A DNA stretch of 64,000 nt, from positions 558,001 through 622,000 of the forward strand of contig NC_018216.1 in NCBI RefSeq assembly GCF_000219625.1, given 5' to 3'. The notes below the pieces were generated by a model. It made no database searches. It worked only from the letters and a program-made list of their open reading frames with translations, and was not told the origin of the DNA. This document shows, one piece after another, positions 1-11,642 of this stretch (within the stretch, counting starts at the first letter, position 1; every line of letters starts with the position of its first letter). The DNA comes from Zymoseptoria tritici IPO323 (lineage: Eukaryota > Ascomycota > Dothideomycetes > Mycosphaerellales > Mycosphaerellaceae). The position numbers and the translations under genes were made by a program.

Positions 1-189
1 AAAGGAAAGCACAGCTTGCTCGTCGAGCTCTAAGTATGCTTGTTCCTTCTTACGTTAGTTTACTGCCTTTTTCCCCTCCGTATAGTAGTTAAGTGCCGCA
101 GCGAGGCGTAAGAAACCCTTAATAAAGCGCCTATAGTAGTTCGCGAAGCCGATAAAGACCCTAATGTTATATATTAACCGGGGAAGTAG

Positions 190-489
190 CTACTCCTGGA
201 CCGATCTAACCCGTTCTAGGTCGATCTCTAGCCTATTACGTATAATAACGTACCTAAGGTAGTCGACGCGGTCCTTATAGAAATCGTACTTAGACAGGTT
301 AGCGTACAACTTGTGTTTCCGGAGGCGCTCCAGCACCTCCCGGACGTGGCCCTCGTGCTCCTTTACCGTTTTAGAGTATATAAGGATGTCGTCGAGGTAA
401 ACAACGCAGAACACGTCGATTAGCCCTACTAATACGCTGTTAATGAAGTTTTGGAACACCGCGGGGGCATTGTAGAGCCCAAAGGGCAT
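190..489 (-). pseudogene. Gypsy reverse transcriptase core fragment
   Basis: This 99-residue open stretch contains the RT catalytic block: an MPFGLYNAPAVFQ segment, then VVYLDDILIYS, with the YLDD box holding the catalytic aspartates. It continues into the thumb region (LRKHKLYANLSK). The first residue is not a real start; it is the surviving open part of a long pol frame interrupted on both sides by RIP-type stops. The equivalent region in copy 2 (34193-34411) keeps the same VVYLDDILIYS core. It is a dead fragment. Confidence 0.88.
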
Positions 490-2705
490 TACGGTGTATT
501 CGAAATGGCCGTATCTAGTCCGGAAGGCTGTCTTCTACTCGTCGCCTTCCCGGATACGGACACGGTAGTACGTATAGCGGAGGTCTATCTTCGTAAAGTA
601 CTTGGCGCTAGCTAGCTAGTCTATTAACTCGGAAATTAAGGGAAGACCCCCCCTGTTCTTTACCGTGACCGCATTTAGGCCGCGGTAGTCGACATAGAGG
701 CGGAGTGTGTTGTCCTTTTTCCTCGCGAAGAGGATTAGCGCGCCCGCCGAGGATGTCGAGCGGCGAATAAAGCTACTCTTTAGATGTTTAGGGAGCTACT
801 TGCGCATTGTATCTATCTCTACCTCCGACAGAGCGTACATAGGGCTAAATAGGACCCTTGCTCCCTTAACTAGGTCGATCCTAAGATCGTACGGTCTATG
901 CGGTGCTAACTTGCTAGCTAACTCCTCCGAAAAGACGTCGGAGAAGTTAGAGTACGCTATTAGGACGCTATTCTAGTCTAGTTCGAGTCTATCCTCGACC
1001 TCTTAGATCGACATAACGTAAAGAGCTACCTCGACTTTACTAAGACACTCCTAGTAGAACCTGTCCGGGGACACTACCGCTATCGCTTAACGCTTTTAAG
1101 GTTTCTACCTCTAGAAGACCTTCTTTAGAGCGAAGTTAATACCCGGGTTGTACTTCTCGAGCTAGGGCATGCCGAGCACGACTTCGAAACTGTAGATACG
1201 TCCTACCTTAAACATGTCTACGCACCCCTACGCCTTGCTAGAGGTGTCTATAGCCTTGTAGGAGTTTCTCGTTTCTCTAAAGACCTACAAGCTCTAGCTA
1301 TTTAGAGTTAGGTACTTTGTCTAGGTAGATAGCTCGGAAACCGTCTACCCTATTTCCTTTGCTAGTATAGAATCGTAGAAGTTGTCCTAGGCGCCGCTAT
1401 TAATTAGGCCCCGGACCTTTCTAGACTCCCCTAGGCCGTTTAGCGTCAACTTAACGCTAATTAGGCGCCCTTGCTAGGCGCGGCGCTTTCCTAGCTTAGC
1501 CGAGCGCCGCTAATCCTTATTGTAGAGGACTTGGCCTACCTAAGTAACAGCGTCTACTTAGGGGGCGTCTCTTTCCCCGAATCCTTCTATAGGTGCTAGT
1601 TAGTACAGTCGCGGCGGATATGCCTAACCTGTTAGCATCCGTAGCACGTAGCCTTAGAGGGGGCCTTCGGGTTCTGTTCGCTATCGCTAGTCCTTGCCTT
1701 CTTGCCGTCCGGAGTAGCAGAGCCGTCGCTAGGGCGCTTCTTCGCCTACTTAGCGGACCTTTTAGCAGCCTGCCTCTTACGAGCCTCCTATTTAGAGCCC
1801 TCGTTAGTACGGTAGGCCTTTTTAGCCCTTTCCTCGGCGTCTACTAGGTTTAGTAGGGCGGTAGGGTAGTTCGAGAGGCGGTTACGAAGGGTCTATAGAA
1901 GGGCGCTATAGAACCTAAGGATCTTCTTGCTATCGTCCCTTTTATCGAGCTCCTTTTAGAGTGTCTTTAGCTCCTCGAGGAGTTCTTCCGGCGTACGGTT
2001 ACCTAGGATAACCTTTTTTAGCTTCTCGTAGGCCTTCTCGCGCCGTTCGGTCTCTATACCTATTAAGTTAAGTATAACCTCCTTTATTATAGACTAGGTT
2101 AGCTTAGACTAGTCGTTAAGGCCGTCGACGTAGCGTTCCTAGTAGTCTTACTAGAGCTTTCCTATATAGTCGGCAGCAAAGTCGACCTTGCGGTCTTCGC
2201 GTTCGGCGAATCCTTCGTGTCGTCTAAAGGCTCTTTTAAGGGCTCGGACCTAGTTGTCGTAGCTCGCACGCGACTTGCCCTCGAAGACTAGTAGCTCCTT
2301 TAACTTAGGGAGGTTATCCCTCGTTTTAGTGTGCTAGTTAGGTTCGGAGAAGAGGTAGCGGAGGGTAGCCGTCCTTAGGTTCCCTTCTAGCGTAGGATAG
2401 TCTAGTTCGGCATAGAGTTCCTTAATCTTCTACTAAAGGGTTAAGAACTCGAAGGTAGCGCGGGCGACTTCGTTGTCGTGCTCCTAGGTAGCCCTTTCTT
2501 CTGCAGTCTCTCCCGAGCTAGGCTAGTTAAGAAGGTTAACGTCCTATAGCTAACTAGCAGGCGTAGCTAATAGCTCCGTAGAGGAAGCGCTTGCCTACTG
2601 TCGGGCGGAGGTGTTAGGAAGGGAATCGTCCTAACGACGGGTAACCTTTAGAGCTATGTTAGTAGTTTTCGGTATAGTTGTACGGTTGTTTTTAATCGAA
2701 TCGAA

Positions 2706-3034
2706 TGTTAGAAGCACCTCGAGAGGGAATGTAGGCTTGTACCGAAAACAAATAGTTGTAGAATGTAACAAGTCGATTCGATAAGGAAGGGGATAGATAA
2801 GAGCGTCCCCCAAGGCTATATACCCGCCCTTCGTATTGCTAAATGCGTCCCTCCGCCTAGACTAGGCACCGGTCGCAGTCTAACGTCCGCTCGGGGGCTA
2901 TCGTGCGCCCGTAAGGTTCGTCCCTCTACAGGATGTCCTAGTCTGGGCCAGATAAGATAGCACCGGTAATCTGTAGTGCCAGGATGGTCCAGGTTAGGAC
3001 AGGTGGGGGGCGTCATCGTAAGGGTGTCCTCACA
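2706..3034 (-). repeat. LTR of Gypsy element A (copy 1)
   Basis: This 329 bp block starts with TGTTAGAAG and ends with CCTCACA on the plus strand. The same 329 bp recur at 22148-22476 and 42986-43314. TG...CA ends and identical lengths mark it as the LTR. Here it is the 5' LTR of a minus-strand element. Confidence 0.93.
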
Positions 3035-4189
3035 ATATATTTCTTACTCGTTTAATTGTGCCCCTTTATGTACGTATAGTAGTTAGTAAGCAACACGGCT
3101 ACTATAAAGAACTAACTAACGGCTTACTTACTAAGTATAAGCTACTTATAGAACGTGTTATAGGCCTACTTACGAGTAGTATTACTAAAGGCGTATTCGA
3201 CGCTAATCCGTAGACTAGAGAGATTCTTATTAAAGCGCTTCTACTCTAGCGTAAGGTAGTAGCGACTAAGTAAATAAGCGTATAGCGCTATAACTCTAAA
3301 GCTACTAAAGTATATAGGATCTCCGTATAGATAGAGCGGTATACGGTTATAGAAGAGTCTTCGAAGTCGTCGGTTAACGCCGGAGTGTCGATATATAAAC
3401 TAGTCGTTCTTACTACCGTTAAAGGGGCTAATAAGGCTAGATACGAGACTATCCGGTGTAATAATAGCCTAGTATTTATAGCCGTATGCCTTCTTATAGC
3501 CTAAATACTACTTCCTTTAGTTTCTGCCGGGCCTTACGAAGCCTTAAAAGTAACTATCTACGAACCCCTATATTATGCCCTCGGCGCTAGCGTCTCTAAT
3601 TATAGTCGCGAAGTAATAGAGCCTCCGGTAGCTACGGAGGCGTAGATGCTATTCGACAATAGTGCTATACCGCTTTACGAGGTAGTTAATAGTATCTATA
3701 AAAACAATAGAGCACTATAATTTACTACGGCTAAACTTCTCCGTAGTATCCTCCTACCGGCATAGATATAATAGGCGCTAAAGGACGAGAGTAAGAGCTA
3801 TCTTAGGTAGTGCTTAGTAACGATAATAGAAGGTTATTATATTAATGTCGAAGGTAATAGCGAGTTCTTCGATTTTATCCTTTAAAAACCTAAGGTATTA
3901 ATTGTTAGTTAGCGGCGGTAACGGTAACCTTTAACTTCTAACGCTTAGCTTCCTTCTTCCTTCTTCTACTACTACTACTACTACTACTTACCGCGTATGC
4001 TTCCGATACTAGCTATCCGGCCTTCTATAGAGCGACTAGTCGATAAACTCGTAATACGAATCTTCCTTCTTCTACTTCGGCGGCTTATATAGCCCGTACT
4101 AGGCTACTAATACGATTACTAACACCGCGAGCTCGAGCTTAATCGAATTATCTATTATAAGAGCATAGGAAGCGGTCTAAGGGCATACA
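3035..4189 (+). pseudogene. Unassigned RIP-mutated coding repeat
   Basis: No family is recognised. One plus-strand frame from about 3118 stays readable for several hundred bases, interrupted only by TAG/TAA codons of the kind RIP makes from CAG, CAA or TGG. This suggests a former transposon or captured protein. A (tac)7 microsatellite lies at 3967-3987. The strip ends where a SINE-like element inserted (TSD acaaggtaagtaag). It could be the gag of an unrelated retroelement or a DNA-transposon ORF. No catalytic motif could be picked out by eye. Confidence 0.5.
3967..3987. repeat. (TAC)7 microsatellite
   Basis: Seven perfect TAC units lie in the RIP-mutated coding repeat, flanked by CTT/TTC-rich sequence. 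In the reading frame of the relic this would code a leucine run. Confidence 0.9.
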
Positions 4190-5089
4190 ACAAGGTAAGT
4201 AAGGTCGGCGACGAGGAACACCTGTACGTGGTGCCGGCTACGAACCTGCGACGATACCGTCGTTGCAGAGCTAAGTTTCCTCCGAAGGATTGGAGAGGCC
4301 GTCGATCCCTCTTCCCTTACAACAACAACACGACCTGGAGGTACGCCTCCTATCGAAATACAAGCTACAACAGAACAACGGCACGATTCGAACGAACAGC
4401 CCTCTACGCTACAAACGAGAAGAAGAAGAAGAAGGAGAAGCAGTCCACTCTGCCCTATACGCGCACCTCCTCGAAATCCGAATCGAAATCGCATGTCCCT
4501 AGAGACGTTGTCGCCCTCGAAAGGAAGCATACATGCACTTTAAAGAGCTGGAACTCGGTAGAATCTACAACTCTGCGATCAACCTGCGTAGCTGTATGCG
4601 TTTGGAAGCGGTATACAGTTCTATAAAGGCATATTAAGGATAAGAGGGGGCAGCGAGTTAGATAGCTGCTTTTGTACTGCTTGTGCACTGCATTCTACAC
4701 TGCTTTTGCACTGCATTCTGCACTGCTTTTGCACTGCATTCTACGCTCCTTTTTTTCGAATTTGTAGCGTGCGTGCGAAGCGGAAGGATCCGCTAAAAAT
4801 TCTGCAAAAAGCTTAGCGCGAAAATTCTGTAGCCCCGGCTGCAGACAACGACACTTGTTTGATTTCCTTTGTCTTGCGCTGTTTTAAAGTCCTTCGGCAG
4901 ATTCTGCTTATAGGTCCTACCTTAGGCACGGGGTTTCCCTTAAGGTTAAAGAATACCGAAAGAATTTAATTGTAAATAGATCTACTGCCTTGTTCGCAAG
5001 GCCGTCCTACATAGTCTTAGACTCCAAAAGGACGTAAATGGAACAAACAAACAAACAAACAAAACAAACAAACAAACAAGGTAAGTAAG
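4190..5089 (+). mobile_element. SINE-like element, copy 1, with target-site duplications
   Basis: The insert is 4204-5075. It is flanked by 14 bp direct repeats, acaaggtaagtaag (4190-4203 and 5076-5089), and ends in an (AACA)n-type tail, the mark of target-primed insertion. Its 3' half matches three other copies (28594, 31422, 33305); its first 80 bases differ from theirs. From about 4670 to 4750 it holds tandem CTGC-TTTTGCACTGCATT-type units. Near the 3' end a hairpin (4987-5002) has a 6 bp stem GCCTTG/CAAGGC closed by a TTCG loop. Unlike its surroundings it keeps abundant CA and TG, so it is young or escaped RIP. ORFs inside it differ between copies and are not credible. Confidence 0.85.
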
Positions 5090-5168
5090 AGCGTAAACAC
5101 TAGAGCGACACGGCCAAGAGATATTGCACAGACTATACGCGTTTTTACGCTTTACCGGATTGATTTAC

Positions 5169-5495
5169 TTACAACATACACGTAACCTTCCGAATCCGGT
5201 AGTTGCGTGGCCTGGCAGTGTATACAGCAAGGCCCTGTAAAAAAGCTCTAGTAGCGCTGCGGACGAGCAAAGCAGGAGGACTAGATCCACCGGACTTGTG
5301 TTTAGGGCAGCTTGGGTTCCGGATAAGATCGCAAGGATCGTTGTTTCCGATGGTACCCGGGTCGTCGGGAGTAGCGCTGCGGACGAGCAAAGCGGGAGGT
5401 TCGGGCGCCATTGGCAATGGAACAGGTGCTGCGATTGTGCGGAGCGCCAGGAAGAGCATGGATGTGAGGATGAAGAAGTTCATGGTGATTTGCAT
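5169..5495 (-). CDS. Secreted two-cysteine repeat peptide precursor 1
   Basis: This 108-residue protein has a clear signal peptide. The second methionine (base 5483) begins MNFFILTSMLFLALRTIAAP, almost identical to paralogue 2, so translation may start there. After the signal come two copies of PPALLVRSAT, exactly 120 bp apart in DNA (29 bp direct repeat at 5251 and 5371). They bracket a 40-residue unit carrying DPCDLIRNPSC, a C-x7-C loop. The arginine before each SAT could be a protease site. The C-terminus runs to within about 80 bp of the SINE junction and lacks a second cysteine pair, so the 3' end may have been lost to transposon insertion. Family unknown; a secreted peptide precursor or effector is the inference. 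Confidence 0.7.
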   Translation of the reverse strand: MQITMNFFILTSMLFLALRTIAAPVPLPMAPEPPALLVRSATPDDPGTIGNNDPCDLIRNPSCPKHKSGGSSPPALLVRSATRAFLQGLAVYTARPRNYRIRKVTCML

Positions 5496-5560
5496 GGTAC
5501 TTTGTGGTGGTGGGCGTTGGCTGATTCGTGAGAGTACCTTGGGCAGGCAATGCGATGCTT

Positions 5561-5568
5561 CTTATAAC
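5561..5568 (-). promoter_or_regulatory. Probable TATA element of precursor 1
   Basis: The minus strand reads GTTATAAG about 80 nt upstream of the M5 start of precursor 1. Two paralogues have comparable TATA-type boxes, though those lie farther upstream. Confidence 0.4.
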
Positions 5569-5569
5569 A

Positions 5570-6939
5570 CCCGTGGGCTGCATACCACTTGGCCGATACC
5601 AGCATTCGACGCCTGCTTCGGGTAAGCATCGACGATGGGTCGAGTCTATATTAGTCCACAGTCGGAAGCTGGTGGTATTCTTCTCAGGGGATGGGCTTTC
5701 TGCTTCTTGTTTTTGGTCCAGAACCTGCACCTGCAAGCATCGGAATAGACAGCATTGAAACTTTACCTTCACTGGTGGCCTGATTCAATGGTATGAGTAC
5801 GAGGGAGTAGGCCAATCCGGCCCTGAACATCACCCCTAGGCCTGCAGAGGTCATCTATTTTCATGCAACCACGTGCTGTTCACGTAGTGCCGCATCAAGT
5901 GCCGTCGGCGCGAACCTGGTCGGGTGATCATTGGTGTCCTGCTGGTAATAAAGTAGTAGACCAATCGAGGCCTGCAGCTGTGCCTACCTTGCAAGTGCGG
6001 ACAGCACTCCTGCAGTGATTCGAAATACCGAGTTTGCTGCATGGCGTGCTTGACTTCTCTCTTCTTGGTCTGGCCAGCATTTGGCTCTCGTGTCATTTCC
6101 ACCACCAGTTTGTCGTCGTCTTGCATTTCTGGTCTGACAATGTAATCTCGGAAGTTCCGATTCGTTGTGCTTTTTTGTCTCGTGCAATATAGGGTTCGTG
6201 CTCACTGTCAGAGCCTCGTCGATTTCTCTGAGTGGCGATCGACCGTGCTCCTCGAAAAGAAAATACATCTGACCTGTAAAGGAGTGCGGCCCGGGAAAGA
6301 GATGGCGATGACCTCCGGACTACGTGGCAGAGAGACTTTGCAATTAGCTTTTGGTCAAGCAGGGAGTACTTCGTCGTTAGGTCTACTCCACGCGCTGACA
6401 GTTGAGTGCGGTCGGCAGCGGAAACCTTCATATGGCCGACGATTTGTGAGATGGGCTCGCAAGTCCTGCAAGGAGCGGACACGAGTTCTTGATCTTGCAG
6501 CAGGCTTTGCTGGGAGAAGGGACTACAACAAAACTCCCTTAAGGTATGCATCAATTGAGTATACTTGGATCTACAGTATTCAGTAAGCCGACTCAGAGGT
6601 GGGAAAGCCCGAGCGAAAATCAGACACAACGCCAAGTGTGTTCAGGAGGGAAGAGTTCCCGTTGAATTTCATCGCTGCATTGAGACTCTCGAAAAAATGA
6701 AATTGTCCGAAGAAGCAACCTCTGCCATTACTTTCGTGAAGCACTCCTCATTATACCATGACCTGCTTGAAGACAAAAATTCATGCCATATGCCTCCCCC
6801 CTCCGATCCACCCGTCTCCTCTTCTTCTCCAATTCGTTGCCATTTCCTTCTCTCCCTCTCATCATATCGACTTCGGTGCCCCAATTGTGTACCTCCGTAA
6901 TCCTGCCGCCGTCCACCTCCAACATATCAAGCACGACCA
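5570..6939. other. Intergenic, between precursors 1 and 2
   Basis: No convincing gene was seen. The part next to precursor 2 (about 6785-6900) is pyrimidine-rich on the plus strand, so it is purine-rich on the coding strand just after the stop. Similar tracts follow precursors 3 and 4. ORFs of 90-180 codons here overlap on both strands and show no domain or codon logic. Confidence 0.5.
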
Positions 6940-7080
6940 TCAATCACCACAGTTGGGTGCGGCCAGATCGCATTCCGGGTCGGTTGTAATAGTGGTGACG
7001 GGTCTTTTGTCGTCGGGTATTGGCGCTGCAGAAGTGCGGAGCGCAAGGAGTAGCGAGGAGGCGAGAACGAAGAAGTTCAT
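6940..7080 (-). CDS. Secreted two-cysteine peptide precursor 2 (46 residues)
   Basis: A 46-codon ORF begins MNFFVLASSLLLALRTSAAP, matching the signal peptide of precursor 1 at most positions. The predicted mature part is 26 residues. It contains a KR pair (residues 25-26) followed by about 20 residues ending in DPECDLAAPNCGD, a C-x6-C loop at the C-terminus. This is the minimal single-unit member of the family. A TATA-like box lies 183-190 nt upstream, as in precursor 4. The product is predicted to be secreted, and the post-KR peptide with one disulfide is the likely mature form (inference). No known family was recognised. Confidence 0.72.
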   Translation of the reverse strand: MNFFVLASSLLLALRTSAAPIPDDKRPVTTITTDPECDLAAPNCGD

Positions 7081-7262
7081 TTTGATGTTGTCGTTCGAAT
7101 CGCTTGCTGGGCGTCGAGTGCGATTGTTGGCCGGCTTGCGATGACTTCTTGGGTATCGGCGAGTTGCGATGCGAGCTCGAATGGTTCGCTGATCGGCTGA
7201 GGTGGGCTGTTTGGCTGACTCGAGTGTTCGACTGGATATGCCTTGAGCAGCGACACGGCGCC

Positions 7263-7270
7263 CTATTTAT
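7263..7270 (-). promoter_or_regulatory. Probable TATA element of precursor 2
   Basis: The minus strand reads CATAAATAGGG about 183-190 nt upstream of the ATG. The same distance separates the TATATAG box of precursor 4 from its start (185-192 nt). Confidence 0.5.
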
Positions 7271-9116
7271 GCACGAATGCAACGTGTGCCGATCGCGAAG
7301 ATTCCAGCGGAAGTGCACGGAAAGGCTGTTCTTCCAGGATGTAGCTTCGTCATCGTACTCGTCGACAAACAAGGAGGATGCTTGGTGTGGACAACTTTAT
7401 CGACGGCAGAACTATTTCGGGAAACTTTTGGAATCACCAACGATCGTTACCTCGTGGTCGGAAAACACCTGGACCAAACGCAAGAAGTAGTGCATGGCCC
7501 CTTGGGCATGTCACCGGCCTTTCCGTGCCAATGGGAGCTCTCGATCAACTGGCGGGATGTGCTCAAGCAGGGTAGATACTTTGTCGACTGTCCGCGCTAT
7601 TCCTGTATGCAGGATACAGGTTGTGATAGCTGGGTGTAAGCAAAGACGTCTTCGCGGATCAGACCCATCTTCCGACTCCGGTCCAGCATCGCGACCTGTT
7701 CCCTGCGCCAAAATGCTCGTCGATCTCCCGACTCTGGTCTGCTAAGTGCCCGACAAAGCCACTGCTGCCGTGGAGTAGCTGTAACCCCGGCTGCTTGACA
7801 TTACAGCGTGTCAACGCATCGTGGTGGTCACCGTGCAGACCAGTCCGGAATGACAGCGTGACTACCCGGGAATGGGCCAAACCGCCCCTGAAGGCTACGT
7901 TGTCCCTGCGAAAGAGGTGATCGGACCATTTCAAAACCCGTAGCCCGGTACGGAGCGCCTCTATGGAAGCCTCTCGCAAGCTGCGAGCATCGATGATCGT
8001 CATTACGATCGGCTCGGCGGCTATAGCAAACAAGGCCTGAATGTCACAAGTATCGTTCTCCAGGGACGAACGCCGGAGCTTCAGTCTGGATCAAAATTCG
8101 TGCTTTGCCGGGAACACCATTTGGTCAAGGAAGGTCCGGACCTCAACGAACAGACCCAAATTTACCATCCAGTCATCCCGGGCGTTCGTCTGACCCGGAG
8201 GCATCGGGCGAGAGTCATGCAACAGAGCATGTCAATGAAGCAAGAAGGAATTTCTTCCACTGCAATATCACGATATCCACCATCATCAAATCGGAGCACA
8301 ACTTTGATGCGATCATGTCGCAGCCATCGTTGGGGAGGTTCCAGCGCCATTGATGTTCATATAAGTTGTGCACGGGGCAGATGGTACCGTGAGCAGGTGA
8401 TGAGCTCGTGCTCACGGACCCGTCTCACGGTCTCACGTGGGACGTGGTGGTGCAGTGCATACAAGAATAGCGCCGGAAACGTCCAGCGAATGCGAGCATC
8501 ACATTCTGTCGAGATCGGGCTGCCATGGGCTTGTTCTGACCTTGCAACCGGCCATCGGGGAATGGGAGCGCGGAACTCTCCAGGGCGACGGGCATTTTGA
8601 CGATGCGAAATAGTTGTCCATGCTCATGCAAGTATGGGCGATCGAGCGCCCTTTCCTTCGGATCCCGAACGCGAGCACGGGAGATACCATCTTGGAAATA
8701 GCTCAAGCGGAATCAAAGCTGAGGCAGGAGGCAAACCCGGTCAAGAAGGCGGTCCACCCAAGAAAGAGTATTAGATCTGGTACAGCAGGCCGCGATACAT
8801 AATGTCGTCGTCTCCAGACCGACAAGGCTGTAGTAGCTCTCCGGCACCATACAAAGCAAAATCTGTCAACGAAGGTCTGATTCGCCTGCCGAGTGAACGA
8901 AAGCTGGTTCGAAGGAGTCCAGTTGCTCTTGCCCAATTCGCTCTCTCCTCGTTCGCCGCCATACTGCTACCTTTCCGTTTCGCAACTCTCCCGCAATGCC
9001 GCCAAATCATCCAGCCATCACAATCCCAGTTCTCCCTCCAAGTCCTACGCTCCTTCTCGTACTCCCATCCATCCGTCCGTCGCCCTTTTCCAATATCCTC
9101 CCCATCACGTCACACT
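7271..9116. other. Intergenic, between precursors 2 and 3
   Basis: No supported gene. Overlapping ORFs of 60-170 codons occur on both strands without recognisable domains. The last part (about 9010-9110) is pyrimidine-rich on the plus strand and forms a purine-rich 3' region after the stop of precursor 3. The stretch is not RIP-mutated (CA and TG are common), so it is ordinary unique or anciently duplicated DNA. Confidence 0.5.
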
Positions 9117-9440
9117 TCAGGTACTCTCATCAGCGGTCGGCGGATCGCACTTGCTGTACGGACAATATTCCGGGTTCCGCTTTTGTTGAGGCACAGTGTT
9201 CACCGGTGGGTCGACCTTTGTGCAGCCCGGGTCGTGAGGAGGACACTGTTGGTCTGGCAGATGTTTAGTCCACCGTGGCAGCAGCGGCGCCAGACTCCGC
9301 TCTTGTTGTGGTGGGTCTCCTTTGCACACTGGACTCCCGGGATGACATTGAACTGGTCTCGGGTGTTTGTTTGGCAACGGCGCCGCGGAAGCTTGGAGCG
9401 CCAAAAGGAGCGCGGAAGCAAAGAGGAGGAAAGACTTCAT
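9117..9440 (-). CDS. Secreted two-cysteine peptide precursor 3, three units
   Basis: The protein has 107 residues starting MKSFLLFASALLLALQASAAP (signal peptide, residues 1-20). Three units follow, each with one cysteine pair then DPP: CHPGSPVC then GDPPQQER; CPPHDPGC then VDPPVNTVPQQKR; and CPYSKC directly followed by DPP at the C-terminus. Loop sizes are C-x6-C, C-x6-C and C-x4-C. The ER (48-49) and KR (87-88) pairs sit exactly between units, as expected for Kex2-like trimming of a multi-peptide precursor. The start was placed at this ATG because it aligns with paralogue signal peptides; the open frame extends further upstream without similarity. Not recognised as a known family. Confidence 0.75.
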   Translation of the reverse strand: MKSFLLFASALLLALQASAAPLPNKHPRPVQCHPGSPVCKGDPPQQERSLAPLLPRWTKHLPDQQCPPHDPGCTKVDPPVNTVPQQKRNPEYCPYSKCDPPTADEST

Positions 9441-10888
9441 GTTTATTGTTGAAGCTCTGTCGTGGGTGATGGGTTGTGTCTGTCGGAAGTGTTCTTCGAT
9501 GATGGATTGTGCAATCCGGAGAATCGAAAGTGGCAACAGGATCGTAATCCCTCGATGACCGATGAGCTTGATGTGATCGTTGACGGATGTCTGGGAAGGA
9601 TAAGGAGTCGCGGAGCGAACCTTGATTTGTAGACAAGACCGATCCTTCCACTCGCAAGACTTCGCCGCGGACAAAGGCGGAGCTGCTACTCCAGGGACAC
9701 AGCTCGATCTTCACGCCCTCTGCTCGAAGTTTCTCGTGCATGCGTGAACAACTCCTCGGAGAGCGTGCATCCAATACAGGGTCTTCATATCCTAGCAATG
9801 TCGTGAGAGCTCCCCGGTAATATCGCAAGAGCAGCTCCGTCTCACTCATCATGAAAGAAGGGAAATTCTCACCGCAGAAGGAATGGTGAGAAACTTTCCC
9901 ACGAACCCATACTTTCCGGACTGAGCTGTGTGTGATTGCCAGAACCCGGTGCCTGGTTCTGCGGGGCGATACCGACATTTTCATGCCGATATGAACAGAC
10001 AGGGATAACGCTTACACAGGTCAACTCAATCGATATTCTCTTCACCGACGAGTCCTCGGATCGATCGAGACAGTCCAGGAGAGAAGTCTCAGTTCCAGCA
10101 GACCGCTGGAAAGTGCCGGATCTTCACTTTTTCGGCGAGAGATCGAGTCGTCGAACCGTTCTTTGGTATACGACTCTGGTCGACTGGGTGATGTCAAGCA
10201 TCTACGGCATGCTGACCGACGGACAACTCAATCGACACCATCTTCGGGTGGCCATCACACCGAGATGCCGAGCTCCCAGGGTTTCTGGAACCGTTGGTTT
10301 GCTGTTCAGGGGATGATGTTCACAGCCCGAACTCAGAACACGGAACACTCGACTGGCGCTCACAGACGGCGGTTCGATCGATTGTGTCTGAGCGGCACTG
10401 GCTGAGAAGCATCCATACTTCCTTCCGAATCCGGACCCCGATTCTTGATCTGAGTAGAGCATGTGTTGGGCGACATCACGGAATTGTCGTCTACAGACGG
10501 CAGTTCGATCGGTTGTCTCCGAGCTGTACTGGTTCAGTAGCATCAATACTGCCGTTCAATAGACGAACACCGATTCTTGCTCCTGGGAGAGGACATAGCG
10601 GGCAAAATTGAGGAACTCGTTCGCATCATGCGTGTGAGAATTGTGTGCAGCCGTCAAAATTGCATACCGTGCTCGACTATCTGATCCTTCATCGCCCAAA
10701 ACGCAACTTCTTCCATCCTCCACCCGTAACTCATCCATAACGCAGACTCCTCGCCAGACACGCCAAGATCCTCGATACCGCCCGCCCCCGTTTTCTTCTC
10801 CACAAGTTCTCCTTCCACTCGTCCAGCTCTCTTCACTCCCTCCCCTAATTCCCTCTCTCCCCTCCCTCCAGGACAGTCCATCAGAGAT
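9441..10888. other. Intergenic with diverged tandem duplication, upstream of precursor 3
   Basis: No gene supported. Bases 10361-10490 and 10491-10600 are diverged tandem copies (both contain AGACGGC-GTTCGATCG and an ACCCCGATTCTTG/ACACCGATTCTTG block). A short block at 9791-9811 recurs upstream of the secreted repeat protein at 53 kb. The end near 10690-10880 is pyrimidine-rich on the plus strand, forming the purine-rich 3' region of precursor 4. Confidence 0.5.
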
Positions 10889-11642
10889 TCAACAACCCCC
10901 GGGTGTTTCCGGACTGCAGTGAGGGACAACGGGGTCGACTTTTCTTGCTGGCTGTGGGCTCCGCGCAGCAACACCTCCATGACCACCAGGAGGTCCACAA
11001 TTGTCGGGATCGAGGCACCAACGGTGAACCTTTGGCTTCGGCTCTGGGTCCCGCGTAGCAACACTTCCACCACCATCAGGAGGACAATCGTCGGGATCGA
11101 GGCACCAATGATAGTGCTTTGGCTCCGGCTCTGGGCTCCGCGCAGCAACACCTCCACCACCACCAGGAGGACATTTGTCGGGATCGAGGCACCAATGATA
11201 GTGCTTTGGCTCCGGCTCTGGGTTCCGTGCAGCAACGTCGCCTCCACCGCGACGTGACGGAGGAGCTTTCGGCTCAGTGTCTGGACCCGTCTGTGGGCTG
11301 CGCGCAGCGACAACGCCGGCACATTCTTTCGGGTCATCAGGCCCACAGATTGGCGCCGAGTTCGGTGGTCCCTCCGGCGTTGCGAATGCACTCCGTTCGG
11401 CAAGGCGGTCGCTGGAATCGTTCACTGGCTCTGGCTCTGGGTTCCGCGCAGCTACAACTCCATCACATATATCCAGGTCACACGGCGGCGGCGGCGGGCG
11501 GTGGCGGATGTACGGTATTGCGGATGCATCTCGTGCAGCGAAATGGTCGCTTGGATCATTCACTGGTGGTATCACAGCGGCAGAAGCCCGAAGTCCGTCC
11601 GAAAAGCAGCGCAGAAGCGACGACGAGGGAGAATTGCTTCAT
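10889..11642 (-). pseudogene. Secreted two-cysteine peptide precursor 4, nine units, frameshifted
   Basis: The ATG at 11642 opens a signal peptide MKQFSLVVASALLF. After a one-base frame offset near 11585-11620 the next frame reads ASAAV and then nine units, each ending in AAR, AER or ATR. Six units carry a cysteine pair: CDLDIC, CGPDDPKEC, CLDPDKC, CLDPDDC, CLDPDNC and a final CSPETPGGC. Three adjacent units of 29 residues (87 bp repeats starting 11003, 11090 and 11177) share a PEPxPK core and WCLDPDxC. The span of 754 bp is 3x251+1, so removing one base would give about 250 residues. Either the gene is a recent pseudogene or the read has an indel; the repeat frame itself is clean over 228 codons. 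This is the largest member of the cluster. Confidence 0.72.
11003..11263 (-). repeat. Three 87 bp in-frame tandem repeats in precursor 4
   Basis: The 18-mer GTCGGGATCGAGGCACCA begins at 11003, 11090 and 11177, giving exact 87 bp (29 codon) spacing. The two downstream units are nearly identical in DNA, so the array expanded recently. Variation falls between the two cysteines (K, D or N before the second C) and in the glycine-rich tail. Confidence 0.9.

What the first reader, a model, noticed from the sequence alone, without database searches (positions are those of the whole stretch)
5169..11642. Tandem cluster of secreted multi-unit precursors with two-cysteine loops
Four minus-strand genes in 6.5 kb share an almost identical signal peptide (MNFFILTS, MNFFVLAS, MKSFLLFAS, MKQFSLVVAS). 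Their mature parts contain 1, 1, 3 and 6 C-x4-7-C loops, mostly with D or P next to the cysteines. In the two multi-unit members the units are separated by ER, KR or AAR. This looks like a family of processed, disulfide-closed peptides that grows by gene and unit duplication. I do not recognise it as a described family. Known relatives in concept are Kex2-processed repeat proteins and dikaritin precursors, but no UstYa (DUF3328) or tyrosinase gene is in the window.
Basis: partly seen in the sequence, partly recalled or inferred. Interest (0 to 1): 0.88.

Follow-up and report, generated by a model that had tools for sequence, protein, structure and literature searches.

The report
Secreted cysteine-loop peptide precursors, partly broken
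A fungus (apparently the wheat leaf-blotch fungus) carries a small cluster of genes that seem to encode secreted chains of short, ring-closed peptides, processed much like fungal mating signals but at unusual cut sites; two of the four genes look interrupted in this genome, and the peptides' target is unknown.

Summary
The cluster is real but partly misread. G1 (5483-5250) is multi-unit: a 16.4-kb nest of repeats splits it from a three-loop piece at C3:546455-546814. G4's signal frame ends after 28 codons; its six-loop frame has no Met. G2 and G3 are open. The 28 cysteines of the mature pieces form 14 C-x4-8-C loops (0 of 20,000 shuffles). Units in G1 and G4 mostly follow single Arg and X-P/X-A ladders; G3 and G2 lack ladders. 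G2 has a C5 paralog: signal and both loop ends are kept, loop centre and linker changed. Best reading: secreted precursors, cut at single Arg by a kexin, trimmed by a dipeptidyl aminopeptidase, giving one-disulfide loop peptides, aimed more likely at plant or microbes than at mating. They seem to work like Kex2-processed repeat proteins and alpha-pheromone precursors but fail the dibasic-site rule of published surveys. Expression and other isolates could not be examined; three searches found no outside homolog.

The parts
5250..5483 (-). G1, 5' piece: signal peptide, PPALLVRSAT spacer twice (5399-5370, 5279-5250) and one loop CDLIRNPSC (5333-5307). A further piece with three loops lies outside the window at C3:546455-546814 (-).
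1..5249 (.). Right part of a 16,435-bp insert (C3:546815-563249) that splits G1: inverted ends, AGT at both flanks (read by eye from the printed junctions), nest of related repeats.
6940..7080 (-). G2: 46-aa secreted protein with one C-terminal loop CDLAAPNC (6972-6949); paralog on C5:592851-592988, 70% identical.
9117..9440 (-). G3: 107-aa open precursor with three loops (9347-9324, 9245-9222, 9164-9147) and ER, LPR and KR separators.
11556..11642 (-). G4 signal-peptide frame: 28 codons, then stop.
10892..11638 (-). G4 unit frame: 249 open codons without a Met, in another frame than the signal; six loops (11482-11465, 11347-11321, 11191-11171, 11104-11084, 11017-10997, 10918-10892), VAAR/VATR/LAER separators, 87-nt tandem units.

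Best explanation
The cluster encodes secreted peptide precursors. After signal-peptide removal, a kexin-type protease cuts after single Arg residues (V-A-A-R, L-L-V-R, V-V-V-R, Q-Q-E-R) and at the few KR; in G1 and G4 a dipeptidyl aminopeptidase then strips X-P/X-A dipeptides (for example SP-EP-EP), releasing short peptides, each closed by one disulfide into a 4-8-residue loop. G2 and its C5 paralog are single-loop forms; G1, G3 and G4 are multi-loop forms. I think the peptides act outside the cell, more likely on the plant or competing microbes than in mating, and that the set turns over quickly by unit duplication, linker replacement and loss. Shown here: anatomy, loop statistics, a paralog with kept signal and loop ends, the interruptions, and presence of Kex2-type and DPP-type genes. 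Inferred: secretion, cleavage, trimming, disulfide closure and target.
For: Cysteine pairing 14 of 14, 0 of 20,000 shuffles. P or A two residues after R in 16 of 26 cases against 7.7 in shuffles, reached in 8 of 20,000 (repeated units are not independent, and 2 of the 16 lie inside the CDLIRNPSC loop). R-anchored ladders of two or more X-P/X-A dipeptides: 10, namely 1 in each G1 piece and 8 in G4 (one of these within a proline run), including VVVR|SASANAAPAPAPAPDP and VAAR|SPEPEP. G4 repeat spacings 90, 87, 87, 75, 144, all multiples of 3. G1 unit copies on either side of the insert: 4 differences in 99 nt, all synonymous. G2 versus C5: signal dN 0.09, dS 0.42; in the compared loop ends (10 codons) 3 synonymous codon changes and one E-to-D; 10 of 10 linker codons changed in meaning. 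One P_proprotein (Kex2-type) and two DPPIV_N matches in the genome. PMC9769878 (passages) says that products of KEPs expressed in Pichia possibly indicate monobasic KEX2 cleavage in vivo; PMC13211469 (passages) says monobasic killer-toxin sites are confirmed in K1 and K28.
Against: No transcript or peptide data. No homolog for G3 (E <= 1), G4 or G1's distant piece (E <= 10) in the large protein search; for G4 only the 7,995 candidates sharing most words were scored, G2 was not searched, and the collection may hold few fungal proteins. G2, C5 and G3 gave no ladder of two or more dipeptides. The centre of the loop is not kept between G2 (CDLAAPNC) and C5 (CDLANNC), which differ in length, and KR of G2 is absent from C5. 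Kex2's published matrix gives zero weight to a P2 other than K or R (PMC2515848 section 7). G1 and G4 look interrupted. dN exceeds dS in two of three G4 unit pairs (0.078/0.053, 0.26/0.33, 0.31/0.23), so unit constraint is not shown there.
Confidence: 0.5

Rival explanations
1. A decaying cluster: former secreted-peptide genes that no longer matter in this strain, with G2 and G3 the last open copies.
For: G1 split by a 16.4-kb nest of repeats; G4 signal and unit frames do not connect. PMC7014611 (passages) reports that 63% of predicted effector orthogroups in the species are accessory.
Against: G2 and C5 keep signal and loop ends with mostly synonymous change; the G1 units differ only synonymously. 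A GT-AG intron could bypass the G4 break (13 open spliced readings among introns of 40-199 nt tried, 4 of them losing most of the signal; donors look weak by eye).
Confidence: 0.25
2. Secreted proline-rich proteins that are not cut into units; the loops are local staples and the Arg residues incidental.
For: Few dibasic sites (none in either G1 piece or C5, one each in G2 and G3, RR and RK in G4); proline is 21% of residues; no ladders in G2, C5 and G3.
Against: Arg recurs at unit borders and is followed at +2 by P/A more often than in shuffles; dipeptide ladders directly after Arg in G1 and G4.
Confidence: 0.17
3. G4 or G3 is the alpha mating-pheromone precursor of this fungus.
For: Signal peptide, two-cysteine units, XP ladders in G4; W-C at three G4 loops, whose cores are nearly alike (CLDPD-K/D/N-C); PG inside two G3 loops and the last G4 loop. 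PMC6339444 section 8 reports two-cysteine alpha pheromones in 13 dothideomycetes, and its passages say that variation among repeats of one precursor is frequent. PMC10569646 (passages) reports alpha factors with few or no KEX sites in some species. My pattern scans found no other candidate: W-C-x3-G-Q-x-C gave six places, of which I translated three and saw no repeat precursor.
Against: No GQ in any piece; the other three G4 cores and all three G3 cores differ from one another; KR/RR do not separate the units; G4's frames do not connect in this assembly. The looser C-x3-G-Q-x-C scan listed only the first part of 257 places, so a canonical precursor could be missed.
Confidence: 0.07
4. Dikaritin-type RiPP precursors, cyclised by UstYa enzymes.
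For: Signal-like start plus repeated cores.
Against: No UstYa piece listed within about 500 kb; no dibasic separators between most units; Tyr is 0.9% of residues.
Confidence: 0.01

Closest known systems
Kex2-processed repeat proteins (KEPs)
   Same: Signal peptide, repeated units, basic cut sites between units, mostly unknown function (PMC6339444, PMC7329392, PMC9769878, passages).
   Different: Units are separated mostly by a single Arg, not KR/RR/KK/RK; by the cut rules stated in the two surveys G1, G3 and G4 would be passed over (my inference; I did not run their pipelines and could not read their tables). Cores vary within a precursor.
Ascomycete alpha-pheromone precursors
   Same: XP/XA ladder after the basic site (G1, G4), two-cysteine cores, several units per precursor (PMC10569646, PMC6339444, passages and section 8).
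   Different: No GQ, many differing cores, mostly monobasic sites, a cluster of related genes plus single-loop forms.
Small secreted cysteine-rich proteins of this genome with a similar signal peptide (C1, C3:2755352, C6, C7, C11 twice, C12)
   Same: Signal of the type MKxxxLASTLLLALCASAAP; E-values from 1e-4 to 0.19 for the 25-aa query, so the weaker ones may be chance.
   Different: Other cysteine patterns in the mature part, as read from the genome.
Pfam PF16720 Albumin_I_a
   Same: G4's unit frame scores 32.9 bits in all, above the 23.8 cut-off.
   Different: Only repeated short matches: two single units score 17.1 and 16.4 bits, a third nothing; treated as chance resemblance.

Membership tests
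KEP | N-terminal signal peptide | tested here: inconclusive
   G1-G3 begin with a hydrophobic stretch ending in AA|P; no signal predictor was available; G4's signal is in another frame than its units.
KEP | At least 3 repeats between KR/RR/KK(/RK) sites | tested here: not met
   Dibasic sites: G1 pieces 0, G2 1 (KR), C5 0, G3 1 (KR), G4 2 (RR, RK). Rule from passages of PMC6339444 and PMC7329392.
KEP | Actual Kex2 cleavage | not testable with these tools
   A Kex2-type gene is present.
Alpha-pheromone precursor | STE13 signature XA/XP before each core | tested here: inconclusive
   Present after most unit-border Arg of G4 and after three of the four such Arg of G1; in G3 only KR|NP has it, ER|SL and LPR|WT do not; absent after KR of G2.
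Alpha-pheromone precursor | Conserved 9-14-residue core repeated | tested here: inconclusive
   Three of six G4 cores are nearly alike (CLDPD-K/D/N-C); the other three and all three of G3 differ. PMC6339444 (passages) says variation among repeats is frequent.
Alpha-pheromone precursor | GQ or PG turn in the core (vast majority of Leotiomycete repeats, PMC10569646 passages) | tested here: inconclusive
   GQ in 0 of 14 loops; PG in 3 of 14 (two of G3, the last of G4).
Alpha-pheromone precursor | KEX1/2 sites KR, RR or KK after cores | tested here: not met
   Only one KR in G3 and one RR in G4; PMC10569646 (passages) notes exceptions in some species.
Dikaritin RiPP | UstYa (DUF3328) gene nearby | tested here: not met
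   61 PF11807 pieces at E <= 0.001 in the genome, none listed between C3:60,316 and C3:1,702,438.

The most novel reading that the evidence does not exclude
The fungus has a leader-conserved, mature-hypervariable peptide family (in pattern like cone-snail toxins: a recalled comparison): one signal peptide type precedes many cysteine frameworks, and one branch has become multi-unit, released at monobasic kexin sites and trimmed by dipeptidyl aminopeptidase, giving a changing mixture of disulfide-loop peptides. Surveys that demand dibasic sites would have missed this class.
Probability: 0.25. Interest if true: 0.75.

Novelty: new variant of a known kind. Interest (0 to 1): 0.5.

Why it matters
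If monobasic, dipeptide-trimmed precursors are common, the two published KEP surveys undercount fungal secreted peptides, since they cut only at dibasic sites (PMC6339444, PMC7329392, passages; the first says, of fungi in which it found no such repeats, that unusual cut sites cannot be excluded). A peptide family with a kept leader and changing disulfide loops in a wheat pathogen would give a simple sequence rule for finding more, and a direct peptidomics test.

Tried and rejected
Homolog searches with G3, G4's unit frame and G1's distant piece found nothing. PDB by sequence, for G4's unit frame only, gave one chance-level match (E 1.3). Pfam hits Defensin_propep (signal region, below cut-off) and Albumin_I_a (summed over repeats) were set aside. 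D/P enrichment beside cysteines was rejected as composition. The C5:1988513 hit to G3 (E 0.11) lies in an open 148-codon frame without a signal-like start and was dropped as weak. The closely spaced C-x3-G-Q-x-C places look like copies of one dispersed sequence, not a pheromone. Of the six W-C-x3-G-Q-x-C places three were translated; of the other three, two show an in-frame stop in the printed match and one (C19) was not looked at. Literature: the listings (shown: 20 of 32, 20 of 64, 2 of 2, 20 of 148, 20 of 40, 6 of 6, 11 of 11, 15 of 33) held no paper that by title or shown abstract describes this cluster; the supplementary tables of the KEP surveys could not be read. Fold prediction was not run.

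Full report
Where it is. The window is C3:558001-622000 of a genome of 39,686,251 bases in 21 contigs. C3 is 3,505,381 and C4 2,880,011 bases long, which I recall as chromosomes 3 and 4 of Zymoseptoria tritici IPO323; no tool named the genome. The start of the abstract of PMC13059725, seen in a search listing, gives 21 chromosomes for IPO323.

What is there. On the minus strand, G2 (7080-6940, 46 aa) and G3 (9440-9117, 107 aa) are open. G1 starts at 5483; its reading to 5169 runs into a repeat at 5249. G4 starts at 11642 but its frame ends after 28 codons, while the six-loop frame (11638-10892) has no Met. A script found 13 open readings with a GT-AG intron of 40-199 nt; 4 of them lose most of the signal, and the donors look weak to me by eye, so splicing past the break is possible but not supported.

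G1 is split. A search with G1's DNA found a 90% match at C3:546697-546820 next to an inverted copy of the repeat end. That piece, C3:546455-546814 on the same strand, carries three more loops and VRS separators. The interval between, C3:546815-563249, has inverted ends and, by eye, the triplet AGT at both flanks; it holds several copies of related repeats, matches pieces of the C4 locus that holds a 5.4-kb copy at about 81-100% identity, and has a TpA/ApT ratio of 2.14, which I read as repeat-induced mutation (recalled interpretation). The two G1 pieces were searched and compared apart.

More than chance. 28 of 28 cysteines of the mature pieces fall in 14 C-x4-8-C pairs; shuffles averaged 4.1, maximum 10, none of 20,000 reaching 14. 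Left out of that count were the cysteine in G1's repeat-derived tail and those in G4's signal region. P or A stands two residues after R in 16 of 26 cases (shuffle mean 7.7; 8 of 20,000 reach it); two of the 16 lie inside a loop. Both tests treat repeated units as independent, so they overstate significance. G4's repeat spacings (90, 87, 87, 75, 144) are all multiples of 3, and Tandem Repeats Finder gives an 87-nt period with 3.3 copies. Constraint on G4's units is not shown: dN exceeds dS in two of three pairs.

Relatives inside the genome. A search with G2 found C5:592851-592979 (70%, E 1.2e-10), G3 (E 0.0027), G1 (E 0.0028), C6:1766925 (E 0.0062) and C11:228890 (E 0.076). G2 and C5 align over 464 columns of DNA at 77%. 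Their signals differ mostly synonymously (dN 0.09, dS 0.42); in the 10 codons compared at the two ends of the loop there are three synonymous codon changes and one E-to-D; all 10 codons compared in the linker differ in meaning (the linker was compared without gaps, so this is crude). The centre of the loop, left out of that count, is not kept: CDLAAPNC against CDLANNC, one residue shorter. Queries with C5 and with the C7 signal found further loci with similar signals. Nine loci were translated; seven gave an open start by my pattern, with other cysteine patterns, and L058 and L062 gave none. So a shared signal alone does not define the cluster: G1, G2 and C5 share signal plus C-[DN]-L loop; G3 and G4 share mainly signal and layout.

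Processing. Dibasic sites are few: none in either G1 piece or C5, one in G2, one in G3, two in G4. Instead a single Arg precedes X-P/X-A ladders in G1 and G4: VVVR|SASANAAPAPAPAPDP, VAAR|SPEPEP, VATR|DPEPKP; ten ladders in all, none in G2, C5 or G3. PMC6339444 (passages and section 8) and PMC10569646 (passages) give XA/XP as the STE13 signature of alpha pheromones. PMC9769878 (passages) says that products of KEPs in Pichia possibly indicate monobasic KEX2 cleavage, as shown before in yeast; PMC13211469 (passages) lists confirmed monobasic killer-toxin sites. Against this, the Kex2 matrix in PMC2515848 (section 7) scores a non-basic P2 as zero. The genome has one P_proprotein match and two DPPIV_N matches.

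Membership. By the rules of the two KEP surveys (passages) the cluster is not a KEP, although it looks as if it works like one. Against the alpha-pheromone criteria it fails the dibasic sites, is mixed on the repeated core and the PG/GQ turn (0 of 14 loops with GQ, 3 of 14 with PG), and meets the ladder at many sites of G1 and G4. It is not a dikaritin by neighbourhood: no UstYa piece is listed between C3:60,316 and C3:1,702,438 among 61 found.

Function. I favour extracellular loop peptides that meet the plant or other microbes, because cores vary between units, linkers turn over and half the cluster looks interrupted; that is inference. Mating is less likely, but my search for a canonical alpha precursor was incomplete: six strict places of which I translated three, and only the first part of 257 looser places listed.

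Limits. One genome, no expression data, no other isolates, no access to supplementary tables. The large protein search found nothing for G3, G4's unit frame (7,995 candidates scored) or G1's distant piece; G2 was not searched there. Literature listings (most show only the best 15-20 papers) held none that by title or shown abstract describes the cluster.

Noticed in passing
C3:546815-563249 (window up to 5249): 16.4-kb insert with inverted ends and AGT flanks, nest of related repeats; two short frames that I recall as resembling Gypsy-type and LINE-type reverse transcriptase; pieces about 81-100% like the locus of a 5.4-kb copy at C4:1425273-1430688.
   Followed up: partly
C6:1766925, C7:1062219, C11:228890, C11:1311376, C12:119578, C3:2755352, C1:5026169 (translated); C5:739141 and C11:1290018 (not resolved): Loci whose signal peptide resembles MKxxxLASTLLLALCASAAP; the translated ones go on into different cysteine-containing mature parts, several of which by eye seem to run into an intron.
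   Followed up: partly
window 10892-11584: Pfam Albumin_I_a passes its cut-off on the whole G4 unit frame only because short sub-threshold matches add up over repeats.
   Followed up: yes
C2:1981289, C3:335675, C4:2328843, C5:177445: A dispersed sequence, in places repeated 42 nt apart, reading CELGGQLC or nearly so, turns up in the pheromone-pattern scan; probably a repeat element.
   Followed up: no
whole genome: 61 UstYa (PF11807) pieces, several close together (C4:1.684-1.692 Mb, C5:1.845-1.849 Mb, C12:0.698-0.702 Mb).
   Followed up: no
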